This document shows positions 6,300-13,574 of a stretch of 36,832 bases of DNA, piece after piece. The notes beneath the pieces are model-generated. The model did no database searches. It saw nothing but the letters and a program-made list of their open reading frames with translations, and had not been told where the DNA came from. The stretch's first letter is position 1. Each line of letters starts with the position of its first letter. The stretch is from the NCBI GenBank assembly GCA_944358505.1, contig CALVRG010000044.1:1-36832 (forward strand). Reading direction: 5' to 3'. This DNA comes from an uncultured Bacilli bacterium (GTDB lineage Bacteria > Bacillota_I > Bacilli_A > RF39 > UBA660). Position numbers and translations under genes: made by a program.

Positions 6300-7112
6300 T
6301 TAAAAGTCTTTTTTGATATTCGAATTAGAAAGTTCCACCAAATAACTATTAAAAAGGCTATCTTTTGTTTCAAACACATATGTATATGAATTAAAATTAT
6401 CAATATAATCGCTTAACAATAAGTTAATATCATCTGAATTATAATCACCATATTTATCATATAAATTTACTATTTTATTAGTACTATTTAATAAATCCTT
6501 ATAACTTCCATAGTATATAGACGAATTAGACCAAGCGAAAGCTTTTTTTAAAGATATTATATAAATTAATTTATCGTTATTAACTATTCTTTTACCTTCC
6601 TGATAATAATTTACAATTGAAGGTGCCATATATGCAGAATGAGCATGATAATCATTATTAGCTTTATACATTTTAGTATTACTATCATATATTAAATATT
6701 CACCATCGCCTAAATAACACTCAGAATTAACTGGTTCAAAAATAGTGTCATTACCAAAATACTTTTTTAAAATTTTTTCTATTTGCTTTAAACTAACACC
6801 TTCATTAAAATCAAGTTCTAAATCTTTCTTAATACTATTAGGCAACCTATCAATAAAATTTATTTTATCTAAATTACTCATCTCTTTTATATTTTTAGTA
6901 CCATCAAAAGTAATTAAATAATTATCATAAATATTCACTAAAGATATCAGAGAATTAATTTCATCATCAGATAACTTATAATTACTAGACGAAATAGAAT
7001 CAGAAGTACTATTATCATTCAAATTTATATTAATTATATATATAAAAGATATTACAATTATTATTGCCAATACTAAAATTAAAAGCATTACAATACTTTG
7101 ACTTTTTTTCAT
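6300..7112 (-). CDS. Membrane-anchored hypothetical protein
   Basis: Protein of 270 residues. It has a basic N-terminus (MKKSQS), one membrane segment at about 7-27, and a polar Ser/Asn/Asp-rich outside part of about 240 residues containing a single Cys and many Tyr. No family is recognised; it could be a lipid-independent surface protein or a cell-envelope sensor. Upstream in-frame GTG and ATG codons at 7121 and 7118 overlap the AGGTG ribosome binding site; the ATG at 7112 has the proper spacing. It stands alone between two terminators, behind a weak promoter. Confidence 0.7.
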   Translation of the reverse strand: MKKSQSIVMLLILVLAIIIVISFIYIININLNDNSTSDSISSSNYKLSDDEINSLISLVNIYDNYLITFDGTKNIKEMSNLDKINFIDRLPNSIKKDLELDFNEGVSLKQIEKILKKYFGNDTIFEPVNSECYLGDGEYLIYDSNTKMYKANNDYHAHSAYMAPSIVNYYQEGKRIVNNDKLIYIISLKKAFAWSNSSIYYGSYKDLLNSTNKIVNLYDKYGDYNSDDINLLLSDYIDNFNSYTYVFETKDSLFNSYLVELSNSNIKKDF

Positions 7113-7154
7113 AATCATCACCTATTTAAAGTATAAAAGAACTTATAAATATAA

Positions 7155-7188: not shown

Positions 7189-7212
7189 AAAAAAAAGAAG
7201 AGTATTCTTCTT
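7189..7212 (-). terminator. Intrinsic terminator of hisS-aspS
   Basis: Perfect 7-bp stem AAGAAGA / TCTTCTT (7195-7201 with 7206-7212), a 4-nt loop and a run of six T on the minus strand. The stem overlaps the aspS stop codon. Confidence 0.8.
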
Positions 7213-8524
7213 ATGGATTTAAACGATTAGGTCCTCTAAAAATAAACATTGCTTCTTTAATTGTTAAACCTAAAGTTAACATTGTAAAACGATCAATCCC
7301 TATAGCAAAACCGCCATGTGGAGGACAACCGTATTTAAAGAACTCTAAATAAAATTTTACATCCTCATCTAATCCTTTTTCTTTTGCTTGACTAATAAGT
7401 TTCTCATATCTATGTTCACGTTGTGCACCTGTTGTAATTTCAACGCCACGATAAATTAAATCATAACCTTGTGGAATATCTTCTTTTCTCATATGGTAGA
7501 AAGCACGTTTATCTTTAGGAAAATCAGTTACAAAAATAAACTCTGAATCAAATTCTTCCATAGCATATTTATAAGATAATTTTTCCGCTTCAGTAGTTAA
7601 ATCATTTTTTTCTTCTTCACTTACTTTATAATTATACCTTTCTTCTAATACATTATATAAATCATTAAGTTTTATTCTTGGAAATTTAGCTTTAGGTACA
7701 ACTATTTCTTTACCATAAATTCTTTTGACCAATTCCCCATATTTTTCATTAACTTTTTTCAAAGCGTAAACTAATAATTCTTCTTCAAAATCCATTACAT
7801 CTTCATAAGAATTAATATATGCAAATTCTAAATCGAAACTTGTAAACTCTGTAGCATGACGAGATGTATTTGAATTTTCTGCTCTAAAAACTGGGGCAAC
7901 TTCAAACACTTTATCATATCCACTAGAAATAGCCATTTGTTTATAAAACTGAGGTGATTGAGCAAGATAGGCCTTACGATCAAAATATTTCACTTCAAAT
8001 ACTTCAGAACCACTTTCTGATGCTGTACCGATCATTTTTGGAGTATGTATTTCTGTAAAGTCGTTTTTATATAAAAATTCTCTCATGTATTGTACTAACG
8101 TACTTTGAATTTTAAAAATATTAAAATTATATTCATTTCTTAAATCTAACCATCTATAATCTAATCTTTGATCAATTAATTGAGCATCCTTATCATGAAT
8201 ATTAATAGGTAATTCTAATGCACTCTCACTAACTACTTCTAACTTAGTAGGAATAAACTCAATTCCTCTTAACCTAACATTTTCATTTGCTTTTAAAGTA
8301 CCTGTTACTTTAACAACACTTTCTAAAGGTAAAGAATTAACTATTTCGACCATTTCTTTATTTTCATCAAGACTTTTTTCAATAGTAACTTGTACTTTAT
8401 CAGTAGAATCTCTAAGCACTAAAAACTGTACCCATTTTATATTTCTAATATTTTCAACAAAACCACTAAGTTCTATTTCCTTATCAATATAATTATTTAA
8501 ATCACTAAAATATATTTTATTCAT
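7211..8524 (-). CDS. aspS: Archaeal-type aspartyl-tRNA synthetase (aspartate--tRNA(Asn) ligase type)
   Basis: Class IIb synthetase of 437 residues: N-terminal OB-fold anticodon-binding domain (about 1-100), then the catalytic core with motif 1 near 150-165, GTASESGSEVFEV (166-178), motif 2 APVFRAENSNTSRHATEF (210-227), and a C-terminal motif 3 GIDRFTML. It lacks the bacterial GAD insertion and ends FRGPNRLNP, as in archaeal-type AspRS rather than AsnRS. Such enzymes in Firmicutes are often non-discriminating and charge tRNA-Asn with Asp for GatCAB; that cannot be read here. The ATG at 8524 has GAGGTG 8 nt upstream and overlaps the hisS stop by 8 nt; an upstream in-frame GTG/ATG region is hisS code. 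The hisS-aspS order matches Bacilli. Confidence 0.9.
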   Translation of the reverse strand: MNKIYFSDLNNYIDKEIELSGFVENIRNIKWVQFLVLRDSTDKVQVTIEKSLDENKEMVEIVNSLPLESVVKVTGTLKANENVRLRGIEFIPTKLEVVSESALELPINIHDKDAQLIDQRLDYRWLDLRNEYNFNIFKIQSTLVQYMREFLYKNDFTEIHTPKMIGTASESGSEVFEVKYFDRKAYLAQSPQFYKQMAISSGYDKVFEVAPVFRAENSNTSRHATEFTSFDLEFAYINSYEDVMDFEEELLVYALKKVNEKYGELVKRIYGKEIVVPKAKFPRIKLNDLYNVLEERYNYKVSEEEKNDLTTEAEKLSYKYAMEEFDSEFIFVTDFPKDKRAFYHMRKEDIPQGYDLIYRGVEITTGAQREHRYEKLISQAKEKGLDEDVKFYLEFFKYGCPPHGGFAIGIDRFTMLTLGLTIKEAMFIFRGPNRLNP

Positions 8525-9842
8525 TACAATCACCTCTTTTATCATGACTATGACAATAACTTTCTAAGTCAACATCTTGATTATCATCACTAATATGTTC
8601 ATCAAAATAATAGATTAAATACTCTATCATAATTTTCTCTTCTTCTTTAGTCTTATTATTTTTAACTGTTACTAAACCATCATTTAAATCATTGCTATTT
8701 AATATAATTAAATATTTGCTATTAAAATAATCAGCTCTTTTAAATTGACTTTTCAAGCTCTTATTATTATATTCTGTTTCAACTACAAATCCTGACATTC
8801 TAAGAAGATTAGCAAGATAAATTGCATATTTCTTCTCATCCTCATTAACATACATTAGAAAGGCATCTATATCATCTCTAACATTACTAAATTTCTTTTC
8901 ATTCATTAAAAGTTCAACCAATCTATCAATACCACCCGCATAACCTACACAAGGAGTCTCAGGACCATCTAAATTACCAACTAATTTATCATACCTACCA
9001 CCACCGCCTAACGCAAGATTAGTAGATTCAGTTTTAAGCTCAAATACAGTATGATTATAATAATCTAACCCTCTGACAATATATGGATCAACTACATATT
9101 TGACCTCCAACAAATCAAGATATTCACATACTTTATCAAAATGCTCTTTACTCTCAACATTTAAAAAGTCCAATATTTTAGGAGCATCTTTAAAATAAGA
9201 CTTATTACTATCAATTTTACAATCTATAATTCTTAAAGGGTTTTTATTAAATCTTTCTTTACAATCATCGCATAAATCATCTAAATAAGGTTTAAAATAA
9301 GTTTTTAAAGCCTCCCTATAAGAATTACGTGAATCACTATCACCTAAACTATTAATATGTACAACAACATCATCTAATCCTAGCATTTTATTAATATTAA
9401 AACTAAGAGATATAACCTCAGCATCCATCATAGGATCACTACTACCTAAACATTCTACACCATATTGACTTAACTCTCTTAACCTTCCTTTTTGAGGCCT
9501 TTCATAACGATACATAGTACCATTATAATAAACTTTAATAGGTAAATTAGCATTACCATACATTTTATTTTCTACAAAACTTCTAACTACACCCGCAGTC
9601 CCTTCAGGCCTTAAAGTTAAATTACGATCTCCTCTATCTTTAAAATCATATGTTTCTTTAGTAACAATATCTGTAGAATCTCCTATACCTCTATGAAATA
9701 ACTCACTCGATTCAAATATTGGTGTTCTTATATAGTTATAGTTATATTTTTCCATAACAGAATCTATTACTTCCTCTACATATTTCCAAACTTTAGCTTC
9801 CTTACCAGTTATATCAACAGTACCCTTTGGTTTAATAATCAT
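8517..9842 (-). CDS. hisS: Histidyl-tRNA synthetase
   Basis: Class II synthetase of 441 residues that charges tRNA-His. Visible are motif 2 (YNGTMYRYERPQKGRLREL), the histidine motifs RGLDYYNHTVFE and LGGGGRYDKL, and a C-terminal anticodon-binding domain. The usual fold seems to end near residue 413; a further tail of about 25 acidic residues contains C430, H431, H433 and C439, an unusual feature. The ATG at 9842 has AAGGA 9 nt upstream, and a TATAAT lies about 25 nt upstream. First gene of a two-gene unit with aspS, which overlaps its last 8 nt. No T-box motif was found upstream. Confidence 0.96.
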   Translation of the reverse strand: MIIKPKGTVDITGKEAKVWKYVEEVIDSVMEKYNYNYIRTPIFESSELFHRGIGDSTDIVTKETYDFKDRGDRNLTLRPEGTAGVVRSFVENKMYGNANLPIKVYYNGTMYRYERPQKGRLRELSQYGVECLGSSDPMMDAEVISLSFNINKMLGLDDVVVHINSLGDSDSRNSYREALKTYFKPYLDDLCDDCKERFNKNPLRIIDCKIDSNKSYFKDAPKILDFLNVESKEHFDKVCEYLDLLEVKYVVDPYIVRGLDYYNHTVFELKTESTNLALGGGGRYDKLVGNLDGPETPCVGYAGGIDRLVELLMNEKKFSNVRDDIDAFLMYVNEDEKKYAIYLANLLRMSGFVVETEYNNKSLKSQFKRADYFNSKYLIILNSNDLNDGLVTVKNNKTKEEEKIMIEYLIYYFDEHISDDNQDVDLESYCHSHDKRGDCNE

Positions 9843-9866: not shown

Positions 9867-9872
9867 ATTATA
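9867..9872 (-). promoter_or_regulatory. -10 element of the hisS-aspS promoter
   Basis: A perfect TATAAT with predicted transcription start about 18 nt before the ATG. No good -35 hexamer at 16-18 bp, and no TGn extension. Confidence 0.5.
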
Positions 9873-9941: not shown

Positions 9942-10043
9942 AAATAAAAAAGTCATCTACTCTTCCTTTTGTTTATAAATTTGGGCGACTTTAAACAAAA
10001 TAAGATGGTAAAGAGAGTTAGATGACTAGGAAAATTAATTCCC
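9942..10043 (-). ncRNA. Long composite terminator hairpin, candidate small RNA
   Basis: The gap 9873-10132 has no open frame of note. It holds a large hairpin on the minus strand: outer stem 10014-10027 with 9951-9963 (13 bp, one bulge; arm AGTCATCTA...CTCT), an asymmetric internal loop of 13 and 3 nt, an inner perfect 9-bp stem (9992-10000 with 9967-9975; TTTTGTTTA / TAAACAAAA), and a 16-nt apical loop containing AGTCGCCC. A T-rich run (TTTTTATTT) follows, so it ends transcription. It lies about 105 nt beyond the stop of the 10133-12016 gene and upstream of the hisS promoter. A possible promoter at 10050-10078 would make a stand-alone RNA of about 100 nt. As a terminator it is likely; as an independent RNA it is a guess. 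Confidence 0.45.
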
Positions 10044-10049
10044 AATAAC

Positions 10050-10078
10050 ACTATATAACAAAACTAAAACAGATACAA
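10050..10078 (-). promoter_or_regulatory. Possible promoter of the hairpin RNA
   Basis: TTGTAT (10073-10078), a 17-bp spacer and TATAGT (10050-10055). The -10 is 5/6 and the -35 is 3/6. It would start a transcript near 10043. Confidence 0.3.
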
Positions 10079-10132
10079 GTACGAGTTTTCGTAAACTCTA
10101 AAATTTCTAATAATATCAACATAAATTTATAT

Positions 10133-12016
10133 TTATTTTTTTAATTCTATTAATATATTAGCAACTTTTTCTATTAAATTACTATTACTAGACTCAATTA
10201 ATTGCTCTATATTTTTATATTTACTTGCTAAAACATTTAATAAATCATAATCAAAACTATTTATAAACCTACTCAACATATCATCATTATTTAATAACTT
10301 ATTTTTAAAATAAGAAACATTAACATCATCTTTAATTAATAAACTATCTATATCCTTTATTAAACCATTCTCTTTATTAAAAGATTTAAAATATACATAT
10401 TGCATAAGAATATTTTCAATTAATAAATTTAAATAACTTTCCCTATTAACATTACTTGCAATCTCCCTAGCTTTATATTTAGAAGTAAACTTTAAAGTGT
10501 TTCCTGTTTTTAAATAATCTATAATTGCATAATTTCCCTGTCCTTTTTTATAAACTTTATCACAAATTAAAATAGCAGTATTAAGATCCAAAACAGTGTT
10601 TATATCTTTAAATAAAGGGCTACTATCTTTAGTAATAGTCACATTTATTTTAGGACTATTTTCTAATAAATATAACTCATTAAGTCTATCATTTAAATAA
10701 TTTGCAATTTTATCACAATTAGTTTCTACATTTTTTCTATTGTTAATATCAATATTAATATTATCTAAAGTATTAACATTAGGAACTACATTAGAAGAAA
10801 CAAAGTTATTAGAAAATAAAGAATCAATAATATTTTCTTCATATAAAGTTTTTAAAATATCATAAGTATGAAATTCACTTTTAATATCAGGATTTAATAA
10901 CACTTCTAGAATAAGTCTATTAATTTCTTTTTCCTTACTATCTATTTCTTTATTCTCTTTAAAATAATCTTTCAATTCTATATCATTATATATAATATTA
11001 GAATACTTCAATGATTTCCTATTGTTTACCACAAGAGCAATCTCATCGATAAAATCTAATTGCATGTTAAGTGTATTTTCCATAAACGTTAATCTTGTTT
11101 TATATTTAGCAATTACTTGATCTATTTCTTTAGACATTTTTGATTTATAACTTTTTTCAATATAACGCATATACTCATTTAAGTTATAATAAATACCAGC
11201 ATTTTTAATAATTACTTTACAAGTTTTTATTATTTCATCTTTACTTAAAACCAAAGTTGACAAATTACTAAAATTTTGATCAAGAATTCTAATTTCATTT
11301 TCATCTCTTACAATAGCATAATACTTTCTATTATCTTCTAAAGTATAAGCTGCATAAATAAATCCATCAATATTCTCAAAAACCGAATCTACTATTTGAT
11401 CATTTAGTTTTACAAAAAGTGAAAAATTACAATCTTCATTTTCGCTATTTTTACCATTAGTTTTGAAATTAAAACTATTCCTAATAACTTCATTAGTTTT
11501 ATTAAGAAAAAGATTAATATCAGTAATATCATTAGAAAGTTTAATATTTTTATATAATGATACTAACTCATCTAAAATTTCACTAGTAAGCCTCAAACTA
11601 TTTATTTTTAAAATATTCTGATTAACCAAATTTATTAAATTATTATAATCTAAAATAGTTTTTTTATTTATACTAGTTAAAATTTCAGTTTTCAAGTTTT
11701 GATAACTAGCATTTATTTTATTATATAATCGCTTAAGAGATTGAAGTTTTTCATCATCATTATCCAAATTGTTAAGAAAATCAAGTTCGGATGAAATATC
11801 ATTTTGTAAATGTACATATTTATTAAATTCATCTTTTAACATGCTTTTTTCAATCCTAATTAAAAGTTGACTATAATGTCCTAGTATCTGAGAAATTAAA
11901 AGATTTTTAGCAGTAATTTTTTCATTTAATATAGTTTTATCAGATAAATTTATAAAATCACTTAATTCAGTTGTATTATCATCAAACTCTTTTAATAATT
12001 CAAAATTATAGTTCAA
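10133..12016 (-). CDS. Large soluble hypothetical protein, mostly helical
   Basis: Protein of 627 residues with no signal peptide and no membrane segment. It is rich in Leu, Asn, Lys, Asp and Ile, with long heptad-like helical stretches at about 40-190 and 290-370. A short beta-like part lies near 200-250 (FSLFVKLNDQIV, YAAYTLEDNRKYYAIV). I recognise no catalytic motif. The chosen start is TTG at 12016 (MNYNFELLKEF), because AGGAAG has correct spacing for it, while the GTG at 12025 lies directly against that site. Its promoter sits inside the terminator of the 12072-13574 gene. The neighbours are two single-pass membrane proteins, so it may be a cytoplasmic partner, which is speculation. Confidence 0.7.
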   Translation of the reverse strand: MNYNFELLKEFDDNTTELSDFINLSDKTILNEKITAKNLLISQILGHYSQLLIRIEKSMLKDEFNKYVHLQNDISSELDFLNNLDNDDEKLQSLKRLYNKINASYQNLKTEILTSINKKTILDYNNLINLVNQNILKINSLRLTSEILDELVSLYKNIKLSNDITDINLFLNKTNEVIRNSFNFKTNGKNSENEDCNFSLFVKLNDQIVDSVFENIDGFIYAAYTLEDNRKYYAIVRDENEIRILDQNFSNLSTLVLSKDEIIKTCKVIIKNAGIYYNLNEYMRYIEKSYKSKMSKEIDQVIAKYKTRLTFMENTLNMQLDFIDEIALVVNNRKSLKYSNIIYNDIELKDYFKENKEIDSKEKEINRLILEVLLNPDIKSEFHTYDILKTLYEENIIDSLFSNNFVSSNVVPNVNTLDNINIDINNRKNVETNCDKIANYLNDRLNELYLLENSPKINVTITKDSSPLFKDINTVLDLNTAILICDKVYKKGQGNYAIIDYLKTGNTLKFTSKYKAREIASNVNRESYLNLLIENILMQYVYFKSFNKENGLIKDIDSLLIKDDVNVSYFKNKLLNNDDMLSRFINSFDYDLLNVLASKYKNIEQLIESSNSNLIEKVANILIELKK

Positions 12017-12042
12017 TACAATCACTTCCTATTCTTTAACTA

Positions 12043-12071: not shown

Positions 12072-12078
12072 CTATTTG
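12051..12078 (-). terminator. Intrinsic terminator of the 12072-14545 operon
   Basis: Stem CAAATAGT / ACTATTTG (12071-12078 with 12060-12067), a 3-nt loop and nine T on the minus strand. The stem overlaps the stop codon. The sequence CAAATAGTTTAAC is repeated in tandem just upstream, so an alternative left arm exists. Confidence 0.85.
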
Positions 12079-13574
12079 GTTAAACTATTTGTATCTTGAA
12101 TAGTAGGAACTTCCTCAAAACTAATTGCACCTGTATTAGCATCATAAACTAGGTTAACATTTTCCCCATTAGCCATTGCATCTACTGCTTGTTCAACAAC
12201 TTCAGAATCAATTGGTTGTAAATCTGTTGCTGTTTCAACTGGAACATCAATTGTCTCTTCTAGAGTTGAAGTGCTTTCTTGTTCTACAGGTACAGAAAAG
12301 TCTTGTTCCCCACTTTCTTGAAGCTCATCTTCAGTAATAATATAATCACCATCATCCATATTCGCTGTTTCATTAGGATCAGGTAGTGATGATAAATCAC
12401 CATCTAAAGTAGAATCATAACTTAAATCATCATCTATAGCTCCCTCATTACCAACTAATTCATCATCTAAATCAACATCAGATTTATCCAAAGAATCATC
12501 AGAAGCATTATCATTATCATCAACAGGAACATCTATTTCTTCACTATAATCATTATCATTAGTTTCATCATCATTATAATTATCATCTGGCACTTCTTCT
12601 TCAATAACATTATCAAGTGAATCATCCGTATTATCACTAGATTCATTAGAATCTCCATTGTTTGAATCATCTAAACTTACATCAGGATCTTGAAATGAAG
12701 GTCCATTACTATTAACACTGCCAGGTTTTTGTGTAACACTACTAGAAATATTACTATATGAATAATTAGAGTCTGAATTATTATTTATAACTTCATTCTC
12801 ATTCTCATTTTCATCTACTTCTTCATCATTTATATTTTGTTCTTCTTTTTCAGTTTTGTCTTCTACTATCTTATCTATATCATCAATTTTATAATCATTA
12901 TCATCCGTTATTGCTACTACACTATCTTGACTAGTAGGACCATTACTTCTACTCAACTTAAGTCCGTTACCACCAACAAATCCAATAGCGAAAGCCGTAA
13001 TAATAGCAGTTGCTTTGAAAATAAAATTCTTAATTTGTTTATTCTTACCTAAAAAATCTTTTAACCTAGAAAATAATCCCCTTTTCTTGGTTTTCCCTTC
13101 TTCTTTAGCTTTCTCACTTTTTTCTTCTTTACCTTCACTAATTTCTTGTTCTTCATTTTCTATTTGCTCTTCGCTAGTCTCAGGTTCATTATTATCTTTA
13201 ATATTTAAAGATTTTTTATTATATTCATCAAGATAAGATAAATAACTAAATCTAAAATGTTTAGCATTAATTACAACATCTTTATTTGCTTTTTGAATTT
13301 TATTCAAAACTTCAACTCTTGATGAACAATTATAATTAAATCTATTAGTATCTAACAACATATCATCTATATTTAATTTATTATAACCATTATCTTTTGC
13401 ATACCTAACAACTATATTTTTTGCCTCTTCATAATCATCAGTAAATTTATAACTAATATAACCATTTTTATCTTTCAAAACATAACAATATACTTTATTT
13501 TTAGTTCTTTTTTTAGCATCATAATCATCAAAACGATAAAAACCTATTACTTTAGTATTATTAGTATTATTCAT
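12072..13574 (-). CDS. Single-pass membrane protein with a very acidic outside domain, function unknown
   Basis: Protein of 500 residues in three parts. Residues 1-120 form a folded-looking domain with Tyr and basic residues (GFYRFDDYD, VYCYVLKDKNG). Then come an acidic/lysine linker (125-165) and one membrane segment (about 183-204). Residues 205-500 are low-complexity, extremely rich in Asp, Glu, Asn and Ser, with few basic residues. An imperfect repeat, SNGPTSQDSVV (210-220) and SNGPSFQDPDV (289-299), starts two sub-blocks. IDVPV also occurs twice. The positive-inside rule puts the N-terminal domain in the cytoplasm. AGGTG lies 9 nt before the ATG; a nearer ATG is out of frame and stops quickly. 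It is 14 nt downstream of the 13589-14545 gene, so cotranscribed. Confidence 0.75.
   Translation of the reverse strand: MNNTNNTKVIGFYRFDDYDAKKRTKNKVYCYVLKDKNGYISYKFTDDYEEAKNIVVRYAKDNGYNKLNIDDMLLDTNRFNYNCSSRVEVLNKIQKANKDVVINAKHFRFSYLSYLDEYNKKSLNIKDNNEPETSEEQIENEEQEISEGKEEKSEKAKEEGKTKKRGLFSRLKDFLGKNKQIKNFIFKATAIITAFAIGFVGGNGLKLSRSNGPTSQDSVVAITDDNDYKIDDIDKIVEDKTEKEEQNINDEEVDENENENEVINNNSDSNYSYSNISSSVTQKPGSVNSNGPSFQDPDVSLDDSNNGDSNESSDNTDDSLDNVIEEEVPDDNYNDDETNDNDYSEEIDVPVDDNDNASDDSLDKSDVDLDDELVGNEGAIDDDLSYDSTLDGDLSSLPDPNETANMDDGDYIITEDELQESGEQDFSVPVEQESTSTLEETIDVPVETATDLQPIDSEVVEQAVDAMANGENVNLVYDANTGAISFEEVPTIQDTNSLTK

What the first reader, a model, noticed from the sequence alone, without database searches (positions are those of the whole stretch)
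9942..10078. Candidate small RNA in the hisS upstream gap
The sequence shows a roughly 80-nt two-stem hairpin (13-bp outer stem, 9-bp inner stem) ending in a T-run, about 105 nt away from the upstream stop codon, with a possible promoter of its own. Other terminators in the window are short and overlap stop codons, so this one is out of pattern. It matches no T-box, SRP RNA or 6S RNA feature that I can see. It may be an independent RNA or just an elaborate terminator.
Basis: partly seen in the sequence, partly recalled or inferred. Interest (0 to 1): 0.5.

Follow-up and report, generated by a model that had tools for sequence, protein, structure and literature searches.

The report
Conserved small RNA upstream of hisS
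A short RNA gene of about 100 bases, kept across a genus of uncultured gut bacteria, carries a strip of sequence that matches the start of one regulator's message and so probably switches that regulator off.

Summary
The hairpin is real and is read on the MINUS strand (about 10046-9946). It is neither a hisS leader nor just a terminator, but an independent ~100-nt sRNA gene: a nearly invariant 16-bp box (TTTACGAAAACTCGTA), a promoter, a covarying 5' hairpin, then a long terminator hairpin with a conserved 8-nt bulge (CUUUACCA) and apical loop (GUCGCCC). It is in 32 of 35 genomes of the genus (Candidatus Onthousia by named relatives); the other 3 lack an intact hisS. In 7 genomes it lies on another contig than hisS. 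11 of 33 pairs show double-sided changes. No Rfam family matches. The bulge pairs over 12-17 contiguous bases (G-U allowed) with the ribosome-binding site of a tandem-HTH XRE regulator in all 29 genomes where both were read; in one relative this gene ranks first of 409 sampled genes, and three orthologues outside the genus lack the match. Best reading: a trans-acting sRNA blocking translation of that regulator. The box recurs up to 22 times per genome, often before toxin-like hydrophobic peptide genes, and before ORF6N, BRO-N or DUF3800 genes, so the sRNA belongs to an undescribed regulon; LexA is unlikely to control it. No experiment shows any of this.

The parts
10080..10095 (-). 16-bp box TTTACGAAAACTCGTA, presumed binding site of an unknown regulator
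   Evidence: Identical or nearly so before the RNA in 31 of 35 genus genomes (21-mer with at most 2 mismatches); G007's copy is cut off by a contig end; recurs elsewhere in the genus
10050..10078 (-). Promoter of the sRNA: -35 TTGTAT (10078-10073), 17-nt spacer, -10 TATAGT (10055-10050)
   Evidence: Conserved spacing and sequence in relatives, where the -10 is usually TATATT; inferred, no transcript data
9946..10046 (-). Small RNA gene, about 100 nt; predicted start 10046-10043, end in the T-run
   Evidence: Covariance model match 9948-10048, E 2.4e-14 (the sequence is one of those the model was built from); one BLAST match in its own genome
10027..10044 (-). 5' hairpin (TGGGAA..TTCCTA)
   Evidence: 7 of 7 pairs with double-sided changes in relatives
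9951..10027 (-). Long terminator hairpin (outer stem, bulge, inner stem, apical loop)
   Evidence: Fold z -4.7; outer stem with double-sided changes
10002..10014 (-). Seed UCUUUACCAUCUU including the unpaired bulge CUUUACCA (10013-10006), complementary to the ribosome-binding site of the XRE gene at G000:C61:8154
   Evidence: 13 contiguous pairs with the own genome's XRE leader, G-U allowed; mean unpaired probability of UUUACCA 0.84 against 0.41 for the whole RNA
9980..9990 (-). Conserved apical loop AGUCGCCCAAA, role unknown
   Evidence: UCGCCCAA invariant in the 16 aligned close relatives; AUCGCCC in L120, L129 and L141, lost in L028/L115
9946..9951 (-). T-run of the intrinsic terminator
   Evidence: Sequence
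9867..9872 (-). hisS's own -10 element TATAAT, downstream of the RNA
   Evidence: Sequence; a TATAAT stands at the same place in most relatives read, with and without the RNA in between

Best explanation
The element is an independently transcribed, trans-acting small RNA. A regulator bound at the TTTACGAAAACTCGTA box controls its promoter. The ~100-nt transcript ends at its own intrinsic terminator. Its exposed bulge (UCUUUACCA[U/C]CUU) pairs with the ribosome-binding site (AAGGUGGUA[A/G]AGAUG) of the mRNA of a small tandem-HTH XRE-family regulator encoded elsewhere in the genome and blocks its translation. Shown by computation: the conserved gene, its structure, its independence from hisS, the box, and the complementarity. 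Inferred: transcription, control by a box factor, binding in the cell, and repression.
For: Conserved RNA with promoter and box in 32 of 35 genomes, the rest lacking an intact hisS; on another contig than hisS in 7. Covariation. XRE orthologues in 32 of 35 genomes, with GGTGGTA[AG]AG before 31 of 32 starts. Own RNA with own leader: 12-17 contiguous pairs, G-U allowed, in 28 of 28 genomes and 13 in G032, so in all 29 genomes with both. By duplex energy none of about 580 control starts is as good in 11 of 12 genomes. XRE is first of 409 genes sampled from G015 (-19.8; next -16.7; mean -8.4, sd 2.6). The seed is mostly unpaired in the predicted fold. Three orthologues in two other genera, where no such RNA was detected, pair no better than ordinary genes with the main-type seed (-8.5 to -11.9).
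Against: No transcript or binding data. Most genomes need one or two G-U pairs. Part of the complementarity (GGTGG) is an old ribosome-binding site shared with orthologues outside the genus. By length of contiguous pairing, 0-4 of 668 control starts equal the XRE gene, and in G031 4 of 580 controls have a better energy. Own RNA is the best of nine partners for only 3 of 9 leaders (G011, G019, G026), so co-variation between seed and target is not established. G002 and G034 have the RNA but no XRE orthologue was found, and G024 only a paralogue. The target came out of a search made for complementarity, and the gene sample was chosen to include it.
Confidence: 0.68

Rival explanations
1. Independent sRNA, but the XRE mRNA is not its main target. 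It may act on other mRNAs, for instance through the apical GUCGCCC loop, or bind a protein; the XRE match is partly an inherited GGTGG ribosome-binding site.
For: The GUCGCCC loop is as conserved as the bulge among close relatives and no target was found for it. GGTGG-type sites also precede orthologues outside the genus. RNA without XRE in G002 and G034. Non-cognate RNAs often pair as well or better.
Against: The full block GGTGGTA[AG]AG is kept in 31 of 32 genus orthologues and missing in the three outside it; the XRE gene ranks first of 409.
Confidence: 0.24
2. cis-acting leader or attenuator of hisS-aspS (T-box-like or new).
For: Lies upstream of hisS on the same strand in 25 of 32 genomes (11 at about 0.2 kb, 14 at 1.0-1.7 kb). 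T-boxes do precede hisS in two distant relatives (L060, L070).
Against: On another contig than hisS in 7 genomes; in 14 others a further stretch of 1 kb or more, with a gene on the other strand in those I looked at, lies in between. hisS keeps its own -10. No T-box match in the window.
Confidence: 0.04
3. Elaborate terminator of the upstream 630-aa gene, no RNA of its own.
For: It does end in an intrinsic terminator, 106 nt past that gene's stop.
Against: Conserved promoter, box, 5' hairpin and loops; the sequence upstream of the element differs between genomes while the element is kept.
Confidence: 0.02
4. A diverged housekeeping RNA such as 6S.
For: Nearly universal in the genus, one match in the window's genome; RF00013 was not detected in that genome (genome 72% complete). 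A 6S gene lies downstream of hisS in one distant relative (L064).
Against: Half the length of 6S, own terminator, no match to any Rfam model near its threshold; L064's 6S lies on the other side of hisS.
Confidence: 0.02

Closest known systems
csRNAs of streptococci, controlled by CiaR (PMC3091779, passages read)
   Same: Small RNAs from regulator-dependent promoters, most predicted with two stem-loops or a terminator loop, with an unpaired stretch complementary to ribosome-binding sites.
   Different: csRNA promoters carry TTTAAG-N5-TTTAAG; here the box is TTTACGAAAACTCGTA. csRNAs come in several copies per genome and mostly carry CAU as anti-AUG; here one copy was found and the seed pairs mainly with the ribosome-binding site and its spacer.
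LhrC of Listeria monocytogenes (PMC4132741, abstract and outline seen)
   Same: Regulator-induced sRNA whose CU-rich unpaired sites block translation of an mRNA.
   Different: LhrC is multicopy with redundant CU-rich sites and is controlled by LisRK; no sequence relation was tested.
T-box leader (RF00230)
   Same: Can precede hisS in Bacilli, with a terminator; found before hisS in L060 and L070.
   Different: No RF00230 match here; separable from hisS; own conserved promoter.
6S RNA (RF00013)
   Same: Abundant-type small RNA gene near the hisS region in some Bacilli (L064).
   Different: No match; about half the length; ends in an intrinsic terminator hairpin.

Membership tests
Trans-acting base-pairing bacterial sRNA | Own promoter and terminator | tested here: inconclusive
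   Conserved promoter-like sequence and T-run; no transcript data
Trans-acting base-pairing bacterial sRNA | Conserved RNA structure | tested here: met
   11 of 33 pairs double-changed, 0 of 500 shuffles as high
Trans-acting base-pairing bacterial sRNA | Exposed seed complementary to a translation initiation region encoded elsewhere | tested here: met
   XRE leader; 29 of 29 genomes with both; first of 409 sampled genes
Trans-acting base-pairing bacterial sRNA | Regulates that mRNA in the cell | not testable with these tools
   Needs reporter assays
csRNA (CiaR-dependent sRNA) | TTTAAG-N5-TTTAAG repeat before the -10 | tested here: not met
   By inspection of the aligned promoters: the box is TTTACGAAAACTCGTA and no such repeat is present (definition)
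csRNA (CiaR-dependent sRNA) | Unpaired anti-ribosome-binding-site sequence | tested here: met
   Bulge CUUUACCA
T-box | Match to RF00230 | tested here: not met
   None in the window; positive control L060 and L070
6S RNA | Match to RF00013 | tested here: not met
   None in the window or in the 72%-complete genome G000; the control search rings in 5 of 14 known genomes, among them Bacillus subtilis
LexA (SOS) regulon | The box is the operator found before lexA | tested here: not met
   Eight of nine lexA loci were read upstream: by eye CGAAC-N4-GTTT-type sites, no TACGA box within 3 mismatches; the ninth (L291) was mis-parsed. A strict GAAC-N4-GTTC pattern also found nothing

The most novel reading that the evidence does not exclude
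The sRNA is the conserved hub of an undescribed stress or defence circuit. One unknown regulator, bound at TTACGAAAA[C/T]TCGTA boxes, turns on a battery of toxin-like hydrophobic peptides together with ORF6N, BRO-N and DUF3800 proteins, and at the same time this sRNA, which silences a tandem-HTH regulator and so reprogrammes transcription.
Probability: 0.25. Interest if true: 0.72.

Novelty: new member of a known kind. Interest (0 to 1): 0.52.

Why it matters
I know of little on sRNAs of uncultured small-genome gut Bacilli, and one search found no RNA paper naming this genus. This gives one sRNA with a covariance-supported structure, a specific testable mRNA target, and a DNA box that opens a whole regulon. 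Finding the box factor would say when these bacteria express their many toxin-like peptides. The route used here (promoter box, conserved bulge, search of ribosome-binding sites across a genus) needs no culture.

Tried and rejected
hisS leader or T-box: rejected. 6S: rejected. LexA as the box factor: unlikely. Phage source of the box: no exact match of the 17-mer in viral contigs; the 27 viral matches to the RNA core were not followed up.

RNA homologues outside the genus: model R2 matched only the five genus members among 386 family genomes. The 21-mer promoter pattern gave 21 places outside the genus; I read all 21 and by eye they are coding or chance, and the reversed control pattern scored similarly there. 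The core pattern gave 7 places outside the genus, which I did not read. R1 misses two divergent genus members (L028, L120) and R2 scores them weakly (E 0.0027 and 0.02), so diverged homologues elsewhere cannot be excluded.

Target search: the 14-mer complement with one mismatch gave mostly matches inside coding frames (the tool cut the list of places). Of 20 places read only the two XRE copies had the string as a ribosome-binding site, as far as I could see. No target was sought for the apical loop. The idea that the XRE protein itself binds the box has no support: its promoter has another conserved block (TTTATCA..TTGACAAAT). The idea of seed-target co-variation is not borne out overall (own RNA best for 3 of 9 leaders). 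The box-to-promoter spacing statistic is weak: of 34 non-redundant sites, 9 have a promoter score of 7 or more at offset 24, 10 at 44 and 8 at 45, but also 10 at 31.

Papers: three papers hold 'Onthousia' (listing); the one opened had no occurrence in the part held. No paper holds the palindromic box form. Searches listed nothing on this RNA or such an sRNA-XRE pair, by titles and abstracts.

Full report
OBSERVATION. The window holds, on the minus strand, hisS (8517-9842) and aspS (7211-8545), and a 630-aa gene without a Pfam match that ends at 10133 (gene names by the translated sequences and the finding). In the gap the minus strand reads: box TTTACGAAAACTCGTA (10095-10080), TTGTAT-N17-TATAGT (10078-10050), a small hairpin (10044-10027), a long hairpin (10027-9951) and six T. 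The fold is far better than shuffles (z -4.7). Rfam gives nothing above gathering scores there and only two weak plus-strand hits with relaxed thresholds.

RELATIVES. The genome (G000, 916 kb, 72% complete) has 34 congeners in the collection. Relatives whose HisRS is 76-82% identical include three named Candidatus Onthousia species. Contig lengths show that two of these are the genomes G001 and G004, so the genus is taken to be Onthousia (inference). Searching 111 loci with the 193-nt stretch found the element before hisS, either directly or about 1 kb away. The alignment shows a nearly invariant box, a conserved -10 region, the 5' hairpin, CTCTCTTTACCATCTTA and AGTCGCCCAAA. Divergent members keep the core as CTCTTTACCACCTTG with ATCGCCC (L120, L129), CTCTTTTTACCACCTTG with ATCGCCC (L141), or TTTACCACCTTG alone (L028/L115).

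DISTRIBUTION AND INDEPENDENCE. 32 of 35 genus genomes have the RNA: 31 by its promoter 21-mer with at most 2 mismatches (the RNA behind it was read in each, G032), and G007 by its core at a contig end. The three without (G003, G005, G033) have no hisS match or only a fragment of 166 residues. From the positions: 11 have it about 0.2 kb upstream of hisS, 14 have it 1.0-1.7 kb upstream on the same strand, and 7 have it on another contig (G002, G004, G008, G009, G013, G019, G032; in G004, G008 and G019 hisS lies within about 1 kb of a contig end, so linkage cannot be ruled out there). A TATAAT stands right before hisS in most relatives read, whether or not the RNA is next to it. The sequence upstream of the element differs between genomes. 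The RNA is therefore not a hisS leader and not one gene's terminator. The window's genome has one copy; 400 kb of G015 held no second one.

STRUCTURE. Model R1 (10 sequences) realigned 26 members from the 26 loci searched, 25 of them distinct. On that alignment 97.5% of 799 cells pair, 11 of 33 pairs have a change on both sides (shuffle mean 3.6), and no shuffle of 500 reaches any of the five measures; slid structures drop to 51-59% paired. All 7 pairs of the 5' hairpin are double-changed somewhere, 3 of 10 in the outer stem and 1 of 8 in the inner stem. The alignment is fitted to the structure, which leans in its favour, and the sequences are related. The four most divergent RNAs aligned on their own support the outer stem, with 5 of 13 predicted pairs double-changed.

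OUTSIDE THE GENUS. R2 in 386 family genomes (150 genera) matched only the five genus members drawn. The promoter 21-mer hit 21 places outside the genus, all read and by eye coding or chance; the core pattern hit 7, not read. Because R1 misses and R2 only weakly scores the most divergent genus members, distant homologues may exist undetected.

TARGET. The exposed bulge predicts a target containing AAG[A/G]TGGTAAAGAG. A genus-wide search with one mismatch gave mainly coding matches, but AAGGTGGTAAAGAT recurred in 14 of the genomes whose places were shown before the list was cut. In two of the copies read (L239, L240) it is the ribosome-binding site and start of a protein of about 152 aa with two HTH_3 domains; one copy read (L241) lies inside another coding frame. 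Close orthologues exist in 32 of 35 genomes (none in G002 and G034, only a distant one in G024). GGTGGTA[AG]AG stands before 31 of the 32 starts; G031 has GGTGGTAAG. Own RNA with own leader gives 12-17 uninterrupted pairs (G-U allowed) in 28 of 28 genomes and 13 in G032, which makes all 29 genomes with both; 0-4 of 668 control starts reach that length. By duplex energy none of about 580 controls is as good in 11 of 12 genomes; in G031 4 are. In a 400-kb sample of G015, chosen to include the gene, it is first of 409 (-19.8; next -16.7; mean -8.4, sd 2.6). The seed UUUACCA is mostly unpaired (0.61-1.00 against 0.34-0.45 for whole RNAs). Exchanging RNAs between nine genomes, the own RNA is the best partner for 3 of 9 leaders (G011, G019, G026); in G019, where the start codon moved three bases, the own RNA leads clearly (-27.5, next -23.3), while for the other six some foreign RNA pairs better. 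Three orthologues in two other genera keep GGTGG- or GGTGA-like sites but not the block; with a main-type seed they score -8.5 to -11.9, with an L120-type seed -8.5 to -14.3, against -19.8 and -22.3 for G015's leader. Repression of this regulator is the likeliest function; it is not shown.

BOX AND REGULON. TTTACGAAAANTCGTA with at most one mismatch occurs 338 times in the 35 genomes, against 42 for the reversed pattern (table, summed): up to 22 per genome, none in G005 and G019. G000 has it at the sRNA and one further one-mismatch match (L338). Contexts were read for 16 loci and 19. Many precede ORFs of 25-31 residues, hydrophobic with basic ends, which resemble type I toxins (recalled resemblance; two were scanned without a Pfam match). 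One ORF6N protein (L342), one BRO-N protein (L337) and one DUF3800 protein (L148) behind a box were confirmed by Pfam. In the sRNA, L116 and L148 types the box ends 24 nt before the -10; in many peptide genes about 44-45 nt before it, roughly two helical turns further, which would suit an activator; the scan behind this is weak. LexA is unlikely: lexA promoters carry CGAAC-N4-GTTT-type sites instead (by eye). The factor is unknown.

NOVELTY. It works like the streptococcal csRNAs but lacks their defining CiaR repeat. It is a new sRNA of a known kind, in a genus for which one search found no RNA work, with a regulatory box for which one search found no paper.

Noticed in passing
L116, L150, L151, L154, L155, L147, L153, L325, L326, L330, L331, L334, L335, L339, L343: Families of 25-31-residue hydrophobic peptides behind the same box, resembling type I toxins; their downstream regions may hold antisense RNAs.
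   Followed up: partly
L337 (BRO-N), L342 (ORF6N), L148 (DUF3800): Larger proteins of phage- or mobile-type families behind the same box; L327 and L341 look like L342, and L144 like L148, by eye.
   Followed up: partly
L142, L145, L152, L156: A copy of the box sits inside what reads as a terminator hairpin of a gene on the other strand (AACAAGC...GCTTGTT arms in L142, L152 and L156).
   Followed up: no
L247, L270, L280, L281 and other XRE loci, about 70 nt before the start: A conserved block TTTATCA[AG]TTAT.TTGACAAAT before the XRE gene, also outside the genus; possible autoregulatory operator.
   Followed up: no
L060:412-581, L070:540-708: T-box leaders before hisS in distant relatives, absent from this genus's loci that were scanned.
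   Followed up: partly
L064:6065-6247: A 6S RNA gene downstream of hisS in a distant relative, while RF00013 was not found in the window's genome.
   Followed up: no
L045 and L049, within about 350 nt upstream of hisS: The end of a TnpB-like reading frame (by eye) followed by a conserved non-coding stretch, possibly its guide RNA.
   Followed up: no
window 10133-12025, 12072-13574, 6300-7121 (minus strand): Three genes next to the region without any Pfam match.
   Followed up: no
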